A stretch of DNA of 64,000 bases from Hyaloscypha bicolor E (taxonomy: Eukaryota; Ascomycota; Leotiomycetes; Helotiales; Hyaloscyphaceae), in contig NW_020194519.1 of the NCBI RefSeq assembly GCF_002865645.1, forward strand, positions 431,542 through 495,541, given 5' to 3'. Under the pieces are notes generated by a model. It saw only the letters and a program-made list of their open reading frames with translations, was not told the DNA's origin and did no database searches. Of the stretch, positions 10,055-25,500 are shown in pieces; the stretch's first letter is position 1; each line of letters opens with the position of its first letter. The translations under genes were made by a program, and so were the position numbers.

Positions 10055-10457
10055 ATGAAGCTTGTATTCTCTTTCGCCGTAGTGCTTCTCGCGTCTGCCG
10101 CCAACACTTTCACCTGTCCCCGAGGCTCGACCGGAGAATGCTGCCTCTCGCCTGTTGATATCCAGACTGTTTGTACGTTCTATTCTTCCAGCCTACCATG
10201 GCATCTTGTCTGATCAAATGAACTTGAAGAATCTTGAAACTGATCCCAGACATGAAGGCGTCGATGCAACGTTTACCGACCCGTCAGCCAGTATACCGGA
10301 CTACCAGTGTAGCTCAAAGAGCATGATTGCAAGGACTCCAAGATGCTGTGTGAAGGTAAATTCTGGTACGGAAATCAGAAAATCGTGCGCTGATTCAAGT
10401 AGAATAATGGTGATTTCTATTGCCGCGAATTTGTGTGAAGTGTCGGGATCCTTGTGA
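10055..10457 (+). CDS. Small secreted cysteine-rich protein, hydrophobin-like spacing
   Basis: The proposed model has exon 1 10055-10172 and exon 2 10288-10457, with a GTACGT...CAG intron, giving 95 residues. Residues 1-18 or so (MKLVFSFAVVLLASAANT) form a clear signal peptide. The mature part has eight cysteines ordered C-CC-C-CC-C-C. Hydrophobins use C-CC-C-C-CC-C, so this resembles a hydrophobin or a small effector-type protein without matching the class exactly. It has no other recognisable domain. The intron choice is the weak point: exon 1 alone would stop 49 codons in, and other acceptors change the middle of the protein. The second half (10288-10457) is open without another intron. 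It shares the gene-bearing island with the UstYa-type genes, but nothing in the sequence ties it functionally to them. Confidence 0.5.
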
Positions 10458-12115
10458 TGAGTGTGGCTTGCGTTGAAACCCAGCCCTAGAAAGACAACTA
10501 CGATTCTATGCAACTTTCACATTCATATCAACTTTATGCACTCCAAATATTCTGAGAATTCGGTCCCCAGAAACCCCTTTTTGCAAAATCTATGGGTGCA
10601 AACACCCCTCGCGTAGATGAATCACTCCCCCCTTAGATTAGGCGAGCCCATAAGGACACCCACGACCCGCTGCAAGCAACACGTTATTATTCGCACCAGC
10701 ATTTACGCATCAGACATATTCTCCAGTCACACTATCATTTCTTCACTGCTAAAGGTGCTGCAAAGGCTCTAAACTAACTATACCGTACAGGCCTGGAAAC
10801 GATCCATGATCGCGTGGATCGATCCACATCGATCCTAAGCGAGCCTTCCGAAAACTCTACTCTTCTTCATGCCGTATTAATACGAGCTTAAGTCCAAATC
10901 TCTCGTGGGAAATATTACAAGAGAGGCGGAATTAAGTAGAGGATATGCGCAATCGAAGGTTTTGTTTTATAATTAGTAGATATGAAGTTATTTGTAAATC
11001 TAGAAGGAGTACGCTATAAGCTTCCTATAATTAATTGCGAAGAGCGGGCAGCAATACGAAGGCAGACGGCATTAAAATTCGTCCAATTCGCTAAGCGAGC
11101 GCGGGCGCAATCCTGACCCTCGCAATAAGAATTTCTTGTAATTCCGTATCACATTTAATAATCGAAAAAATTCTACGAAAGTTACATCTGCTTCCTTTCT
11201 ATCTCGCAAAACTATTTTGAAGACTTTTAGATATTACGTTGAGATTTGGTGTAATTTTCTAAACGTAGCGATTTTGGTGTTCCTCGCATTTTTGCGGATG
11301 GACGGTTTTTAATGCCGCCCGCCTTCGTAGCCTGAGGGACAATCTCGCTTGGGATCGATACCCCAGCGTTCAACCAAAGCGTTCATCAACGAACCCTTTC
11401 AACGGTGCCACCGCGAGGTGTTCCCCTTCACGATTTGAAAGAGGTAATATTGTATCATAATGGGCTATCGCAACTGCCTCTGCTCTCAAAAGGGCCGGAA
11501 TCCCTGATCTTCGAAGCTATCACCCAAGGAAGTGAAGTTCCCTAAGAGGAAGGTTGCACCGGCAAGCAGCGCACTGGGTTAACCTGTGTGCTCCACCGGG
11601 TGAGTTACAGGGGTGCGAATGAGGATTTTTGAGGACCCACCGGGGACTCGGTTGCACCACTTGCACCTCGTAAATGCATGCACTTCTTATCGGTTGCCGA
11701 AGCGATAGCAATGTGAATGGTCACAATGCCGGCTTCAAATCATGCGGCTAGTGAAGGAAATGCGAAGATATGATTTGCAACCCATACCTCTGGACAACAT
11801 TATTAATATTTTAACATCAACAAAATATCAATCTTCCAAAAACCAAAAAAGAGGGAAAGACTCGAAGAACTTCTGAAGGTCTTCACTAAATCAGAAAAGT
11901 AACCACTGCAAGTTTAGTCATTAGGGAGTTGCCCACTGGTAGGCAGCTAACTTCAGGTCTGCACAGTAAGCCCCAAAGAGACCGATTTAGTGAGATGCAT
12001 GCCAGCATTTGCCGCACACTAGCTACGCTGCAACGAGCGCCACTCATACAATGCCCCTCACTCGGTTGTCGACTGAGTTCTCTCATCCTCCTTGCTCCCT
12101 TCCGGAAATCTTGTC
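10458..12115. other. Intergenic region, no gene seen
   Basis: About 1.65 kb without a convincing coding frame. It contains a short palindromic cluster around GGATCGATCC near 10800-10840 and the inverted-repeat element at 11055-11329. The last few hundred bases should include the promoter of the UstYa-type gene at 12116. Short frames at 11520-11711 (minus) and 11886-12132 (both strands) have no family features. Confidence 0.6.
11055..11329. mobile_element. 275-bp MITE-like element with TA ends
   Basis: The ends form an imperfect terminal inverted repeat of about 32 bp. The left arm starts TACGAAGGCAGACGGCATTA and the right arm, reverse complemented, starts TACGAAGGCGGGCGGCATTA; both continue through AAAA..CGTCC. 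TA at both outer ends fits the TA target preference of Tc1/mariner-type elements. The interior has no coding capacity. It is therefore called a miniature inverted-repeat element; the family name is inferred. Confidence 0.6.
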
Positions 12116-12847
12116 ATGGCTTCAGCTCCTGAGCCTTCGCAGCCAGACTCGAACGCTGAGGAGGACCACTTGATCTTTCATGAATACGAGGACGAGAAAG
12201 ACCGAAGAATAGACGAATTACACTACAGTCGTCGAAGAATATGGATCCCAGCTACGACATCGAGCCTAGTTACTCTTGTTGTGGTTACTGCTCTCCTTAG
12301 CATGCTTCTCTCTGGATGCGCACTGTACTTTCTGCACCTTCTTGGTCCCCAGCAACCCTCAGGAATAGCTCTTCCACAACCAGGGGCTCGTTTTGGTTTC
12401 TGCGGTGACACACCATCCTCAGCCCGTCAAGCAAATTGCACATTCGACCTCATGTCATTCTCATGGCTCCCACCCGCCTGCGCAGAAACGGAGCTCACGA
12501 CAGAGTTCTTGAGATTAAGGAACTGGACATGGTGGATAGATGCAGAAAAGGACAATCCCGTGCCATTGCATGAAGTCTCAAAGGGAGACCACAGAGAACT
12601 GTATGTTACGAGGGAATATCACATGTATCACTGTACATATATGTGGAGGAAGCTGCATCGAGGACTGCTCAGAGGTCAAGGAAGTACGGATGAGAGGGGA
12701 GTCGTGGATACATATATTGGAGCGTATAGGCACACGGCACATTGTGAGATGATGTTGCTAGGAATGGAAGGCGATGAAGGTGGAATTGATAAAATGGCTA
12801 CCGATACGATCATTGCGATGAAATTCCCGCAATGTATGTGGACATGA
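12116..12847 (+). CDS. UstYa-type (DUF3328-like) membrane oxidase, single exon
   Basis: This is a 243-residue protein. A charged N-terminal tail (1-45) is followed by one membrane segment (about 50-75) and a lumenal/extracellular part. That part carries two HxxHC motifs, HMYHC (169-173) and HTAHC (206-210), the hallmark pair of the UstYa family, which includes copper-type oxidases that cyclise fungal RiPP peptides such as ustiloxin, phomopsin and asperipin. The CG..P...R..NCTFD and W.PP.C stretch (95-122) is typical of a divergent subgroup of these proteins. I chose ATG 12116 because upstream in-frame sequence offers only a non-ATG start, and GTCATGG is a good context. It is convergent with a second UstYa-type gene 127 bp away and lies 3.2 kb from a Kex2-repeat precursor. 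Substrate is unknown; a role in peptide macrocyclisation is inference. Confidence 0.75.
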   Translation: MASAPEPSQPDSNAEEDHLIFHEYEDEKDRRIDELHYSRRRIWIPATTSSLVTLVVVTALLSMLLSGCALYFLHLLGPQQPSGIALPQPGARFGFCGDTPSSARQANCTFDLMSFSWLPPACAETELTTEFLRLRNWTWWIDAEKDNPVPLHEVSKGDHRELYVTREYHMYHCTYMWRKLHRGLLRGQGSTDERGVVDTYIGAYRHTAHCEMMLLGMEGDEGGIDKMATDTIIAMKFPQCMWT

Positions 12848-12974
12848 AGAATGGCGTTATTCTCACAAAACTTATATCTTAACACGAAATTGAACTCAAA
12901 AGAAGCGATTGAATGCTGTTCGAAGTGAGGTGCTTTGTTTATTTTACGGTACGTGAGTTTTGACATTTCAAATG

Positions 12975-13919
12975 CTATGAATGTTCATGTCCATGAACCT
13001 CGTGTCCATGAGCCTCGGTTTGCCCAGCAGCCGCTCTGGCATGGTGAGCTCGTTGCCACTCCTGGATCTTGTCAAACTTCTTGCATTTGTGCTGCGTGTT
13101 AAAATCGGGTGTTGCTCCCAACTCCGCTTCGGGCTCCAGCACGTGTAAAAAGGGTGTCACATCTGCGTAACACATCAACCGAATTCTTAGAGCGTCTATG
13201 CAGTGATCGACGTGCTGTGAGGGTGTCAATAAATATGTTTGTTGACAAGATCAGGAAACTTACAATTCTTAAGAACTCGTCATCATCTTGGAACGTCGGG
13301 TTGTCGCTGTAATCATACTCGTCCTTGTACGTATATTGTCGAACCATATCCAAGCAGTGAAGGCTGTGAAAGACTTCAAGACCAGCTAATACACCTCCAT
13401 TTTCTGAGTAGAACCAATTATGCTCTTTCGACTTGTTCAATGCGGGAAGTTGTTCCAGTGGAACGTCAACCGATCCGACTGTTGCTTCTGTTATTTCTAT
13501 CCTTGTAAGAGCTTTTCGATGAACTTACTCTTCCAGAGGTCGCTCCATGATTTCTCAAGCTTGGGTGTAGGTTTACCTCTATATGCACTTGGCTGGTAGA
13601 AGGTGTTCGAAAATTGGACGTCTTCGTACTCTACAATATCAAACACCGGAGCTACAAGAATTTACATCAGCTGTTTATCTCACTTCTATTCTATTGTCCC
13701 CTCTTCTGTCGACTTACACCATGCGTTGAGCTGCCGCGTGCACTCGATATCCGTGAGTTTCTTCGGGGTTATCCACGAATGGAAGTTGCTAGCAATTGAT
13801 ATTATGGCCAGGATCCATCCTAACAAGGCGAATTTGTTGGAGATAATCCTCCGTTTCCCAATGACGGAGGAGATTGGCTGGGGAAGAAAGCTCTCTGACT
13901 CGGAATCGTCGAACTCCAT
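12975..13919 (-). CDS. UstYa-type (DUF3328) oxidase, four exons
   Basis: Exons read 13919-13718, 13651-13529, 13487-13264 and 13214-12975, all GT-AG with phases that agree, giving 262 residues. Introns are 66, 41 and 49 nt. An acidic tail (1-20) precedes one membrane helix (about 30-46). Exon 2 carries the family's PVFDIVEYEDVQF and PSAYRGKPTPKLEKSW-type segments. Exon 3 has LPALNKS and the first motif HSLHC (149-153), and exon 4 opens with the second, HVDHC (184-188). The C-terminus ends in a His-rich tail (HGHEVHGHEHS), which could bind metal; that is speculation. UstYa enzymes oxidatively crosslink Tyr-containing core peptides in the secretory route. This one is the nearer of the two oxidases to the precursor gene at 16039 and is transcribed away from it. 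Confidence 0.87.
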
Positions 13920-14625
13920 ACCGGCGTAAGTCTTCTATTCTTTCGCATCCAAGTATTGATGAAAATTCAACACTGACGGGACATCAAGTTGGAGAGAAAG
14001 GTTTCAAAACACGGCACAAGATTGACTAATACCAAGATTGCAACCGGTCTTAGAAATCAAGCATACATCGTGCCGGCAATAACTTTAGGTTAACTTCTTA
14101 CACGATGAGACAATGAGAGCCTAGCCTAGTACCACAAGAAAGCCTTCGCGGGGTTTCAATCAGCAGCTACACCTTGCCTTGGGCGGTGTTTCCCCAAAAT
14201 GACCGAATCCATCAGTTTAGGGGCTCGCTTAGGCCTTGGCGACCTGATCCTGCTCGTAAACAACCCTGTCAACTCTTATCTGAATGAGGGGTACATCTCA
14301 AGATGTAGTCAGTAGAGAGATGACTTGCCCAGATAGGAAGTTCGGTATGGAAGACCCCACAGTTGGATATATATCTTATCGGTTTCTAAGCCCGAGTCAG
14401 CGCTAATGTCCTCCTAAGCGCTCTGCATATCATCGAGAACTATATAGTAATCAAAAAGTAAATTATCTTTACTACCAGGGTGCAACGTGGAGAGTATATC
14501 ACACCTTACAATACAATCACGCGACGAACTAACCCGTTTTATTAAGGAAAAGAGGAGAGATAAGCCCGAAAAAAATACAAGGAGCATCCCAAAAGGGGTT
14601 TGGTTCGTACTATGATCCATATCCT

Positions 14626-14648
14626 AAGGCCCGGGCCGCCCGGGCCTT
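14626..14648. repeat. GC-rich palindrome
   Basis: Ten-base arms AAGGCCCGGG and CCCGGGCCTT flank CCG. It stands out in an otherwise unremarkable intergenic stretch. It could be a recognition site or chance; nothing around it decides. Confidence 0.5.
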
Positions 14649-15044
14649 GAAAGCCAGATTTAGAGGGTAAGAAGGCCTAGAAAGCCCGAAAATCCCGAAA
14701 GGCCCCCGCGGAAGCCCTGAAAGTAGCTTGGTCAGCCCAGAAGAGCTCGGGACCTCCCTTTAGAAAACCGCACGCGCTGTAACGAAAAAGTAGCTTGCGA
14801 TACGTAAAGACTCAAGTACTTTACAACATTACGCGTAGCGTTACAAGTCCACCACCCTGTTCAAACGGTTAGTGGTTAGTGGCCTCCATTAAACCTCTGG
14901 GTGAAGCTTTGGATCGTCTCAAGGCACGATAATGAATCAAGAACCATGATTCACTCGTAATTTAGAAAAACAACTCAGCACTCTGGCGAGCGAGAACTTG
15001 CCCAGGATGTTTACTCTTGTAGCCGTGTCGGCCGCCCTGACCAG

Positions 15045-15417
15045 TAATCACGAGGTTTCCACCAGTTCGCCTATTTCCCTAGAAATAGGCGAGGTACACC
15101 GAAAAGCAAATTTCAGCGAAACGCAAGTTGATTTTCTCGCGGGCAAAATCGTCTTTTTGGTCCGTGCGTCGAAAATCGAAATCGCACCTTACTCTTAACT
15201 TGCTCGTAGAATATTATTTTTGGTGAGCGAAACTTAATAAGAGTATCTAAATCTTATTTTTATTACTTAAATAATACTTTTGCTTCTTCGGATTTCTTAG
15301 GAGAAGGCGTGGTTAGAGAGAAATAAAAAAATATTTGCGTTTCGCTGAAATTTGCTTTTCGGTGTACCTCGCCTATTTTTAGGGAAATAGGCGAAACTGG
15401 TGGAAACCTCGCGATTA
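15045..15417. mobile_element. 373-bp MITE-like element with ~75-bp inverted ends
   Basis: The left arm begins TAATCACGAGGTTTCCACCA and the right arm, reverse complemented, TAATCGCGAGGTTTCCACCA. The match continues with a few mismatches for about 75 bp to CAGCGAAACGCAA. Each arm also holds a small internal hairpin (CGCCTATTTCCCT/GAAATAGGCG). TA at both outer edges fits a TA target duplication. The 220-bp core has no coding capacity and is AT-rich. This is a non-autonomous inverted-repeat transposon, probably Tc1/mariner-like (inferred from TA), inserted between the oxidase genes and the peptide precursor gene. Confidence 0.75.
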
Positions 15418-16038
15418 GTTGACTTCAACGCCCACCCCCTAAATTTAAACCTTCTAAATTCTTTTTTGTCAACTCGCACAGGTTCAGCTGAGAATGAACT
15501 GACCTGCCCCATCTAGCTAAAATGCCGCCGCCGGAAAATTATTGCATGTCCGAAGCTCGTCCATTGCCAAGTCAAATTTCACCACCGCGCGCCAATGTGA
15601 AGTCAAACGCCACGGGTTTTCCCCAGATGCATCTCCAGGTGTACGTACCTCCCTAATGCAGCTTATTTGGCCCACATCAATGCCTGCAATATAAGCGATT
15701 CGCGGAGTTGACTCCATTATTGGAACCTTGGAGGAAGTCCCGAATAGGCTGGCATTCCTGAGACGGCGAAGACCTGACAGACCGATACGAGTTTGAGCGT
15801 TGCCACCTCATAGCATAGAATTAGTCTCATTAGGGCAGGTGGTAGCTGGGATAACGGGATGCTGTTCCGGAAGAGCCGCTGCATTAGAATTTCAACTATA
15901 TCTTCTCATGGGATTGACATATCTCAAATCAACCTTCATATTTAATCTTGCTTCATCTCTAAAAGCCTCCCTATCTCGAACCTAGACACACTCAAACCAC
16001 ATTTTTTTGAATTACAAGCCCTTACAAGAAGCTTCAAA

Positions 16039-16293
16039 ATGCAGCTTTCCACACTCCTCATCCTGGTTCCGGCCCCGCTGGCCGCTGCTCTTCCAGCACC
16101 TGCCAACGACATCCTCTCCGAAATCCAAGGTCGCAAAGCCAGTCCCATCGCCGAAGCCGAACCTATCCTCTACATCAAACGAACTGGGTACGGAGACAAG
16201 CGCGAGGCAAGCCCAGAGGCAGAGGCTGAAGCCGAACCCATCCTCTACATCAAGCGAACTGGGTATGGCGACAAGCATGAGATTGAGGGTTAA
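16039..16293 (+). CDS. Candidate dikaritin-like RiPP precursor with two Kex2 repeats
   Basis: This 84-residue, intronless protein has a signal peptide (about 1-18, MQLSTLLILVPAPLAAALP). After it come two copies of PILYIKRTGYGD (42-53 and 67-78; 16162-16197 and 16237-16272), spaced 25 residues apart. Basic pairs KR occur at 47-48, 54-55 and 72-73, and the last repeat has KH (79-80). The linker EASPEAEAEAEP can be parsed entirely as X-Ala/X-Pro dipeptides, as in yeast alpha-factor spacers trimmed by Ste13-type peptidases. Secreted repeat precursors with KR-E/A linkers and Tyr-bearing cores next to UstYa genes define dikaritin RiPPs; two UstYa-type genes lie 2.1 kb upstream. Candidate cores are ILYI and TGYGD, or the uncut dodecapeptide. 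An alpha-pheromone is less likely because there is no Trp/Gly-Gln core. Function is inferred; the repeat architecture is seen directly. Confidence 0.75.
   Translation: MQLSTLLILVPAPLAAALPAPANDILSEIQGRKASPIAEAEPILYIKRTGYGDKREASPEAEAEAEPILYIKRTGYGDKHEIEG
16162..16272 (+). repeat. Two-copy core-peptide repeat inside the precursor gene
   Basis: Two 36-bp copies (16162-16197, 16237-16272) encode the same twelve residues with a 75-bp period and differ mainly at third positions, for example AAACGA/AAGCGA and TACGGAGAC/TATGGCGAC. Silent differences with identical peptide output suggest selection on the peptide rather than a fresh duplication. Confidence 0.85.
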
Positions 16294-22543: not shown

Positions 22544-25500
22544 TCAGATTGTTCTTGATCGGAAGTGGGACTGCAGTAGCTTGACGACAGCCTCGTGCCC
22601 TCTGTCTGCAGCTCGCGAGAGCGGCGTCTGACCAAGTTCATCCTTCGAGTCAGCGTCGACTTTGCCAGAATCGAGAAGCAGCTTGACGACGGCCGCGTGC
22701 CCTTTCTTTGCAGCTCGCGAGAGCGGCGTCTGGCCAGCATTATCCTTCGAGTCAGCGTCGACTTTGCCAGAGTCGAGAAGCAGTTTGACGACGGCCGCGT
22801 GCCCTCTCTCTGCAGCTAGCGAGAGCGGTGTTTGACCAATTTTGTCCTTCGACTCAGCGTAGACTTTGTCAGAATCGACCAGTAGCTTGACGACGGTCTC
22901 TTGCCCTTTCTTTGCAGCCCACGAGAGCGGCGTCCGGCCAGCATTATCCTTCGAGTTAGCGTCGACTTTGCCAGAATCAAGCAGCAGCCTTACAATAGCC
23001 TCGTCTCCTATCTCTGTAGCCCACGAGAGCGGCGTCCGACTAGATTCATCCTTCGGGTCGGCATCGACTTTGCCAAAATCGAGCAGCAGCTTTATAATAG
23101 CCTCGTGGCCTATCTCTGTAGCCCACGAGAGCGGTGTCCGACTAAACTTATCCTTCGGGTCGGCATTGACTTTGCCAGAATCGAGCAGCAGCTTAACAAC
23201 GGCCTCTTTCCCTATCTGTACAGCCCACCAGAGCTGTATTCGACCACGTTTATCGTTCGAGTTAGCATCAACTTTGCCAGAATCGAGTAGCAGCTTAACG
23301 ATGGCCTCTTGCCCTAGCCGCACAGCCCACCAGAGCGGCATCCGACCATATTCGTCCATTGCATTTGCGTCGACTACCTCCCTTTCCAATAGTTCAACTA
23401 GCAGGTTGCACACCACCGGCTCTTGTTCTAACTTGTACCAAGCGTGATAAAGGCAATACGACTTTGCATAAGAGTAAAAGTGAAATTCATCTACCGAGCG
23501 AGGTTTGAAGTTCTTGCTCGCTCCCGCAAGAGCCTTGCCAATGTCATGATCAAGCTGTTTCCCGGAATGTAAAAGCTTCAATGCAAGGCTTCGAGCATTC
23601 CGTGAAGAATCTAGGGCTGAGCGGATAATTGTAGAAGGGGCTGATGCGGTCATTATTCGCGGGACTACCATAGTACATAGCTGGGTACTAAAAATGCCGT
23701 AATTGAGGTAGGTAACGATAACGTCTGCCATCTTCCTATGTGCACTACATTCGGTAAATGGCAGTCCATTCGAGTCTTCGGACCCACTAAGGAGGAATTG
23801 CTTGACACTATGGTGCACAAGTCGTATGGTCAACTCCTCTTCATCGACGGCGATGAGGCTTCCGCAGCAAGTCAATGTCGAATACAATTCGTTGAGGAGC
23901 CTTGCCGGGTTGAAGGTAGTATCGCCGGGAACGACACTTAAGGCTTCCCGAAGTTCTTCGGTTGTTAAGGGACGGTGAGCCACGGTGATGAGCTCTAGTA
24001 TCGGCCTCTGATAAGGTTTACCTAAATCTTCCGGTTTCCGTAGAATGCGTGAAAACGTTTCTGAGAGATCTTTTGGAAGATCCGCCAGAGCCTGGCGAAT
24101 GGCCTCATCTGTTTTCTCGGCGCATAAGGATTTGATTTGAAGGGCTACCCAGAGGAACATTCCTTGAGCACCTTCTAGGAGAGCATTTCGTATTTCGAGT
24201 ATAAGGGCGGGATCCCCGATCGCCAGCTTTCCAGACTTCAGGCAGCTCTCTAACTCTGCACCAATGAAGCTCTCAATATCAGGATTATTATCAGGAATTG
24301 AAATAACGCTGGGGTTAGCGAACTGTTCCAGTCTCAATCCCAAGGCATTGTCGACCTCCAGTCTGGTTGAAACACAGAGAAGCAGCGCAAATATCTCCTG
24401 GAGTTCCTGAAGTTGTCGAATCAAGATCTGTCTCTCAACATCATCACATTCATCCAACCCGTCGAGGATAAAGTACGCTTTAAAGTTAAATGGAAGGGCT
24501 CGTTGGAGCAAACTGAATAATTTTTCGAAATCAAGTGCCGGAGTAGTCTCATCAAGGAATCCCACCGCCATGGAAAGATCAGAAATTGGGCGCAACAATT
24601 GTCGAGCTAGAGACCCAATGACCGTCCGCGCTTTCAAGCTCTCAAGAATATCGTGCCGGCAAAAGAAATAAGCCACTGCGATATTCTTGTTTTGAACATA
24701 AAGATTCAAATCATCAATAACGTTGGCCAGTAAAACAGACTTTCCTGATCCCAGCTTGCCTATATAAACGAGGGTGCAGGAATCTGGTCGGCCCTTCCAG
24801 TTCTGGTATTGGGTAGCTTGGCTGAACAGGGTTGCGTTTCCGACTTTTCGAGTCTGCTTCCACGTAGTCTCGTAATCGTACGTGGAGCAAGACTCGAGGA
24901 GGCGTAGCTTCGTCTTCAGTTTTCTGTGGTGCGACGCCCTTTCCGAGAACTTGTTCGAAAGAGCTCTGAATCGGGAATTCTCACGGGCTTCCTCCTCAAT
25001 TTTCTGGCCAATTAGTAGGTTCACCTCCTCTTTTACCGAATTGGCCCAGAGGTCGAGTTCTGATTGGTAGGTCTTTGGGTCTAAGTCGCTGAGAGAAGAT
25101 ACCAACTGCCCCAAGATCGACTTTTGTGTGAACTTTAATAGCTGATGGCAGAGACGAACTACCACAATGAAATATTCAGACAGGCTTGACTGCAGACTTT
25201 TGGATAGGGGATAGAGTAGGGCCATCGTTTGGTAACGGGGGGCCGAGCGTCCGACGGTCATAAAGAGGTCCGATAACTTTTCCAAGTAGGAGGTGGAGGT
25301 AACCATGAACTATAAAGACATTAGTCAAGAACAAAATAAAGGAGGTCAAGAGACACTGACAAGCAAGGTCATTCGCACCAGCGACCACACGCCACATGCA
25401 ATTATGTTCTGGGATGCGCCTACTATGACATCCCCTAGTGCCGCGAATTGCTGGACGGCTTGTAGGACATTGATCAATCGAGGTCCGAAACACCGCCCGC

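What the first reader, a model, noticed from the sequence alone, without database searches (positions are those of the whole stretch)
12116..16293. Compact candidate dikaritin-type RiPP locus: two UstYa-like oxidases plus a Kex2-repeat precursor
Seen: two genes each encoding one membrane helix and a pair of HxxHC motifs lie within 4 kb of an 84-residue secreted protein with two identical PILYIKRTGYGD units and KR sites. Known: UstYa (DUF3328) proteins oxidatively cyclise Tyr-bearing cores released by Kex2 from repeat precursors (ustiloxin, phomopsin, asperipin-2a, epichloecyclins). Inferred: this is a RiPP pathway. The core matches none of the known ones I recall, and no methyltransferase, tyrosinase, peptidase or transporter is visible nearby, so it would be a minimal cluster.
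Basis: partly seen in the sequence, partly recalled or inferred. Interest (0 to 1): 0.88.

Follow-up and report, generated by a model that had tools for sequence, protein, structure and literature searches.

The report
Fungal repeat-peptide cluster with cross-linking oxidases
A fungal genome carries, within 4.2 kb, a gene for a small protein with two identical repeated units and two genes for predicted membrane proteins with paired motifs known from copper enzymes; together they likely trim the units out and would cross-link them into a small cyclic peptide, a possible new branch of a known fungal peptide family.

Summary
Gene 1 (12116-12847 +), gene 2 (12975-13919 -, four exons) and an 84-aa repeat precursor (16039-16293 +) are there. 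Gene 2 is a UstYa/DUF3328 oxidase (PF11807, 181.7 bits). Gene 1 and 17 relatives miss that model but all keep two HxxHC motifs. The homologues redefine the core: in 35 of 35 motif-fitting repeats an unbroken STE13-type X-Ala/X-Pro ladder runs from an arginine to one fixed residue, so the core is most likely the 11-mer ILYIKRTGYGD with an uncut internal KR, not ILYI plus TGYGD. Best reading: a minimal dikaritin-like RiPP locus, with Kex2 and STE13-type trimming and two HxxHC oxidases cross-linking two conserved tyrosines. Product and chemistry are untested. New variant of a known kind: pheromone-style maturation joined to UstYa oxidases, one of them outside the Pfam family.

The parts
12116..12847 (+). 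Gene 1: 243-aa UstYa-like protein, membrane-type helix 48-75, HxxHC at 169-173 and 206-210, conserved Cys 96, 108, 122, 240
12975..13919 (-). Gene 2: 259-aa UstYa/DUF3328 oxidase, four exons (13919-13718, 13651-13529, 13478-13264, 13214-12975); His-rich C-terminal tail by eye
   Evidence: exon model; PF11807 181.7 bits, E 2.4e-53; exon hits
15045..15417 (.). Inserted MITE-like element with inverted ends between gene 2 and precursor (not part of the function)
   Evidence: inverted repeats; 99% and 98% identical copies on C44 and C64
16039..16293 (+). Precursor gene, 84 aa: hydrophobic signal-like N-terminus, pro-region, two repeats
16135..16164 (+). STE13-type ladder 1, KA-SP-IA-EA-EP (residues 33-42), after a single R
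16165..16197 (+). Core 1, ILYIKRTGYGD (residues 43-53), followed by KR
16204..16239 (+). STE13-type ladder 2, EA-SP-EA-EA-EA-EP (residues 56-67), after KR
16240..16272 (+). Core 2, ILYIKRTGYGD (residues 68-78), followed by KH

Best explanation
The locus is likely a minimal dikaritin-like RiPP cluster in which a two-repeat precursor is predicted to be secreted, cut by Kex2 and trimmed by a STE13-type dipeptidyl peptidase to the 11-mer ILYIKRTGYGD, which would then be cross-linked at its conserved tyrosines by two predicted membrane-anchored oxidases that carry paired HxxHC motifs. Shown here: the genes, the PF11807 match of gene 2, the paired HxxHC motifs of gene 1, the homologues of precursor and gene 1 with near locus tags in one relative, and the register of the ladder. 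Inferred from families: entry into the secretory pathway, Kex2/Kex1 cleavage, dipeptide trimming, a binuclear copper site from the two HxxHC motifs (reported for the DUF3328 protein CctR, PMC12435403), and Tyr cross-linking as in asperipin-2a (PMC6514808). Untested: that the two oxidases act together, that the internal KR stays uncut, and what the peptide does.
For: Gene 2 matches PF11807 at 181.7 bits. Gene 1 and the 17 relatives aligned with it (of 46 hits) all keep both HxxHC motifs, with the CctR-like order of disordered N-terminus, membrane-type helix and helices that carry the motifs (PMC12435403, first of three parts read). The precursor has 13 non-self homologues. Hyphodiscus hymeniophilus has D0Z07_6263 (gene 1, 60% identity) and D0Z07_6266 (precursor), both with listed contig length 1,626,522; the tree puts 6263 and gene 1 in one 28-row clade without the six other own-genome paralogues used. 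The ladder is unbroken in 35 of 35 motif-fitting repeats and in 0 of 35 when shifted by one. Core substitutions between the two units are all synonymous. The genome has a proprotein-convertase P domain and a DPPIV-type protein. Of 8 gene-1-family places in this genome 5 lie within 10 kb of a PF11807 place; leaving out the window, 4 of 7, chance 2.7e-8.
Against: No transcript, peptide mass or enzyme assay. The second unit ends in KH, so it may not be released cleanly here. The ladder follows KR in 23 of 35 repeats and a single R in 12. Five further degenerate or truncated repeats fell outside the motif, and at least two break the ladder (P0010 first, P0011 second; sequences). The internal pair is KR in 29 of 35 repeats and RR in one, which also fits a cleavage site. 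The gene-1 profile aligns with UstYa proteins only weakly (probability 36%). Linkage rests on one relative and on locus tags, not on DNA; gene 2 beside a precursor was not shown in any relative. Two other named species with gene-1 relatives (Hyaloscypha variabilis, Stipitochalara longipes) gave no named precursor. Le Marquer et al. (PMC6339444, passages) state that STE13 signatures are absent from precursors of toxic cyclic tetrapeptides and of epichloecyclins.
Confidence: 0.67

Rival explanations
1. The precursor makes an unmodified, pheromone- or hormone-like secreted peptide, and the oxidase genes are neighbours that serve another pathway or none.
For: The signal-like start, X-A/X-P ladder and KR sites are the architecture of alpha-factor precursors (PMC10569646 and PMC6339444, passages). 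Le Marquer et al. propose STE13-bearing precursors as hormone candidates. GQ stands at the end of one unit in each of P0001 and P0002, and PG in P0010 and P0011.
Against: A gene-1 relative has a near locus tag to the precursor in Hyphodiscus. In Umemura's survey 0 of 227 yeast-type and 3 of 216 fungal-pheromone-type precursors have DUF3328 genes nearby (PMC7329392 section 8). The window core has no Cys and no GQ or PG, whereas the vast majority of Leotiomycete alpha-factor repeats are reported to have GQ or PG (PMC10569646, passages). An alpha-factor described there for H. hymeniophilus, with KEX sites missing after several repeats, does not fit P0012 and seems another gene; its sequence was not seen. 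Two Tyr recur in the units.
Confidence: 0.2
2. Kex2 also cuts the internal KR, so two small peptides (ILYI and TGYGD) are the substrates, each cross-linked on its single Tyr.
For: The internal pair is KR in 29 of 35 repeats and RR in one; KR is the standard Kex2 site.
Against: 5 of 35 repeats, in P0001 and P0002, have EQ or QQ there while the KR after the unit and the ladder are kept. The ladder marks one core start per unit. The stretch from first Tyr to GY recurs as one block.
Confidence: 0.25
3. The locus is a decaying remnant: intact reading frames, but silent, between AT-rich blocks, with a lost second Kex2 site and a recent transposon insertion in the gene 2-precursor spacer.
For: KH after unit 2 where the close homologue P0004 has KR; AT-rich blocks on both sides; MITE copies 98-99% identical elsewhere, which suggests recent movement.
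Against: All three frames are intact, the unit differences are synonymous, and gene 1 keeps its motifs and 91% identity to its nearest relative; no dN/dS was computed.
Confidence: 0.12

Closest known systems
Asperipin-2a cluster (aprA, aprY, aprT, aprR; Aspergillus flavus)
   Same: Small RiPP cluster with a repeat precursor and a UstYa-type oxidase; core FYYTGY is Tyr-rich and ends TGY (PMC6514808, passages), and some relatives of this precursor read [IVL]FYIKRTGY.
   Different: Core probably 11 residues with internal KR, not 6; two oxidase-type genes, one outside PF11807; STE13-type ladder; no reductase or transporter found in the part scanned. The FY...TGY likeness is a resemblance; homology was not tested.
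Ustiloxin and phomopsin clusters (dikaritins)
   Same: Secreted repeat precursor with Kex2 sites, several DUF3328-type oxidases, Tyr in the core (PMC6514808 and PMC7329392, passages and sections).
   Different: No tyrosinase, methyltransferase, peptidase or transporter domain in the part scanned; unlike core; two repeats only.
Ascomycete alpha-factor pheromone precursors
   Same: Signal peptide, X-A/X-P ladder, repeats ended by KR; an 89-aa precursor with two repeats is reported in Oidiodendron maius (PMC10569646, passages).
   Different: No Cys and no GQ/PG in the window core; oxidase genes nearby, reported for only 3 of 216 fungal-pheromone-type precursors (PMC7329392).
CctR, cyclochlorotine hydroxylase (DUF3328)
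   Same: Membrane helix plus helical domain with two HxxHC motifs; reported binuclear copper (PMC12435403, part read).
   Different: Hydroxylates a non-ribosomal cyclic peptide; gene 1 has three of its conserved Cys (96, 108, 122) before the motifs.

Membership tests
Dikaritin (UstYa-type RiPP) | Precursor with signal peptide and repeated cores between Kex2 sites | tested here: met
   signal peptide judged by hydrophobicity only; two repeats here, up to four in relatives; KH after the second here
Dikaritin (UstYa-type RiPP) | DUF3328/UstYa oxidase in the cluster with two HxxHC motifs | tested here: met
   gene 2: PF11807 181.7 bits, HxxHC twice
Dikaritin (UstYa-type RiPP) | Side-chain cross-link, Tyr ether to a beta-carbon, in the product | not testable with these tools
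   needs mass spectrometry and NMR
Dikaritin (older five-gene definition) | Tyrosinase, methyltransferase and transporter or peptidase in the cluster | tested here: not met
   none in the frames scanned, a part of those listed; some of these also lacking in asperipin-2a (PMC12048977, passages)
PF11807 UstYa (gene 1) | Match over the Pfam cut-off of 25 bits | tested here: not met
   no match for gene 1 nor for any of 18 sequences, gene 1 and 17 relatives
DUF3328-like copper oxidases by motif (gene 1) | HxxHC(x)nHxxHC on helices after one membrane helix | tested here: met
   18 of 18 sequences; helices 48-75, 166-189, 204-215; copper itself not tested
DUF3328-like copper oxidases (gene 1) | Fold shared with a solved copper oxidase | tested here: inconclusive
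Alpha-factor pheromone | STE13 ladder and Kex2 sites around repeats | tested here: met
Alpha-factor pheromone | Core with GQ or PG turn | tested here: not met
   neither dipeptide in the window core; but GQ ends one unit in each of P0001 and P0002, and PG is in P0010 and P0011

The most novel reading that the evidence does not exclude
A peptide hormone that is cross-linked: an alpha-factor-style precursor, with its STE13 ladder, has been captured by a two-oxidase copper machine, and gene 1 founds a separate oxidase family that is the obligate partner of UstYa proteins on repeat precursors. Signalling peptides and UstYa cyclic peptides would then be one continuum rather than two classes.
Probability: 0.35. 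Interest if true: 0.75.

Novelty: new variant of a known kind. Interest (0 to 1): 0.55.

Why it matters
It gives a precise, checkable core and mass for a fungal peptide family with members in Hyphodiscus and in unnamed public contigs. It joins two traits that surveys reported as rarely combined in ascomycetes (STE13 maturation and UstYa oxidases). It points to an oxidase-like family that PF11807 misses, so mining that relies on PF11807 would count only one of the two oxidases here. Two-repeat precursors such as this one and the Hyphodiscus one fall below the three-repeat threshold of the largest survey I found (PMC7329392, section 13).

Tried and rejected

Gene-1/UstYa/repeat-precursor triples: among ten fetched PF11807 neighbourhoods, repeat precursors were found in 3 of 5 with a gene-1-type gene (window, C19:654 kb, C76; not C18, C23) and in 0 of 5 without (C5:1.42 Mb, C14, C19:72 kb, C22, C25 in part); Fisher p 0.17, suggestive only. 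Only stretches of 5 kb or more were scanned, 290 kb in all. The same scans also returned the NACHT-ankyrin frame and other frames of that region in the window, which I did not count. The PF11807 places on C45, C46, C51, C60 and C75 and the gene-1-type place on C71 were not fetched beyond 3.5-kb loci, if at all. C24, fetched, has two gene-1-type places, no PF11807 hit and no repeat precursor. In the gene-1 tree P0020, P0033 and P0044 of 46 hits and the C71 copy were left out, and the own-genome paralogues have long branches.

One search was run in the wrong reading frame (16040) and is void; it used one of three protein searches, so gene 2 homologues were not searched outside this genome.
Full report
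What is there. The window is C5:431542-495541 of an 82.0-Mb, 76-contig genome. The three named sources among the gene-1 hits are Stipitochalara longipes, Hyaloscypha variabilis and Hyphodiscus hymeniophilus; the last two are Helotiales, so a helotialean fungus is likely. The locus sits in an island of 45-48% GC (about 10-17 kb) between AT-rich blocks. Gene 1 and gene 2 converge, 127 bp apart; gene 2 and the precursor diverge across 2.1 kb that holds a MITE-like insertion.

The precursor. The 84-aa frame at 16039-16293 holds two 12-codon units with identical protein. Their four nucleotide differences are all synonymous, which 0.48% of random placements achieve. A search of a 5.8-billion-protein set found 14 members, one of them the window's own. 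Each carries one to four motif-fitting units, and most share the signal-like start and pro-region. In this genome the gene is single-copy at any significant E-value (one search also listed one match with E 3.56).

The ladder and the core. Of the recognisable repeats in the 14 proteins, 35 fit the motif [ILVF]x[YF][IVF](KR/EQ/QQ/RR)xGY. In all 35 the residues between an arginine and the core are X-Ala or X-Pro dipeptides in unbroken register, four to seven of them; shifted by one residue, with two dipeptides asked for, 0 of 35 are. The arginine is part of KR in 23 and stands alone in 12, mostly before first units. Five further repeats were outside the motif (P0010 first, P0011 first two, P0014 first and last); at least two of these break the ladder. 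X-Ala/X-Pro is the STE13 signature after Kex2 sites (PMC6339444, passages). The internal pair is KR in 29, RR in 1 and EQ or QQ in 5 of the 35, so in those five units of P0001 and P0002 it cannot be a dibasic cut site. I therefore take the core as ILYIKRTGYGD here; that its KR stays uncut is inferred. The first Tyr is Phe in one of 35; the second Tyr is part of the motif used for the count, so its constancy there is by construction.

The oxidases. Gene 2 matches PF11807 from residue 30 to 237. Gene 1 does not, nor does any of 18 sequences, gene 1 and 17 of its 46 hits, yet both HxxHC motifs are invariant in all 18. Its model (mean pLDDT 76.6) has a membrane-type helix and a well-predicted domain with the motifs on two helices. 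That order fits CctR, for which two HxxHC motifs are reported to form a binuclear copper centre (PMC12435403, first of three parts read). Profile comparison with this genome's UstYa proteins aligns the motifs but is weak (probability 36%). Eight places of the gene-1 family were found in the genome, and five lie within 10 kb of a PF11807 place; such flanks cover 0.53% of the genome, so 4 of 7 outside the window has chance 2.7e-8.

Conservation of linkage. Hyphodiscus hymeniophilus D0Z07_6263 (gene 1, 60%) and D0Z07_6266 (precursor) carry tags three apart and the same listed contig length. In the tree 6263 falls with gene 1 in a 28-row clade (support 96/97) that holds none of the six other own-genome paralogues used. 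I could not read the DNA there, so the two genes between are unknown.

How it probably works. Shown: genes, motifs, register, homologues. Inferred: secretion; Kex2 and Kex1 cleavage; STE13-type trimming (a convertase P domain and a DPPIV-type protein are in the genome); copper-dependent cross-linking of the Tyr pair by gene 2 with gene 1. The role of the peptide is unknown; a hormone-like and an antagonistic role are both open.

Against what is known. It works like a dikaritin cluster and meets the defining features that could be tested (UstYa oxidase, repeat precursor), with only two repeats and few genes, like asperipin-2a. It differs in the STE13-type ladder. Le Marquer et al. say this is absent from precursors of toxic cyclic tetrapeptides and epichloecyclins (PMC6339444, passages), and Umemura found DUF3328 neighbours for 0 of 227 and 3 of 216 mating-type precursors (PMC7329392 section 8). 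Precedents soften the novelty: 17 of 76 homologues of putative basidiomycete pheromone precursors had DUF3328 neighbours, and a Rutstroemia pheromone homologue with one two genes away was discussed as an intermediate (same paper). Five spellings of core pieces were found in no paper of the library; supplements were not readable. Hence a new variant of a known kind.

Noticed in passing
window 10055-10457 +: Possible two-exon secreted 105-aa protein with a hydrophobin-like C-CC-C-C-CC-C pattern; no Pfam match.
   Followed up: partly
window 15045-15417: MITE-like element; 98-99% copies on C44 and C64, and similar ends about 2.1-2.2 kb apart at C71:3422211-3424427 and C26:1032952-1035054, perhaps the autonomous element.
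   Followed up: partly
window 11055-11329: Second foldback element with 31-nt inverted ends upstream of gene 1.
   Followed up: no
L029, near C19:654415, minus strand: Another repeat precursor with KR-separated QLGELGNNTD units and no Tyr in them, beside a PF11807 gene and a gene-1-type gene.
   Followed up: partly
L040, near C76:97276, minus strand: Repeat precursor with three long units ending NYGEYDE, inside a cluster of several UstYa genes.
   Followed up: partly
window 22544-25309 -: Long NACHT-ankyrin (NLR-like) open frame with near-identical ankyrin repeats.
   Followed up: no
P0001, P0002: Unnamed precursors with mixed cores (ILYVEQAGYGQ, ILYVQQTGYGF), hinting at several peptides from one precursor.
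   Followed up: partly
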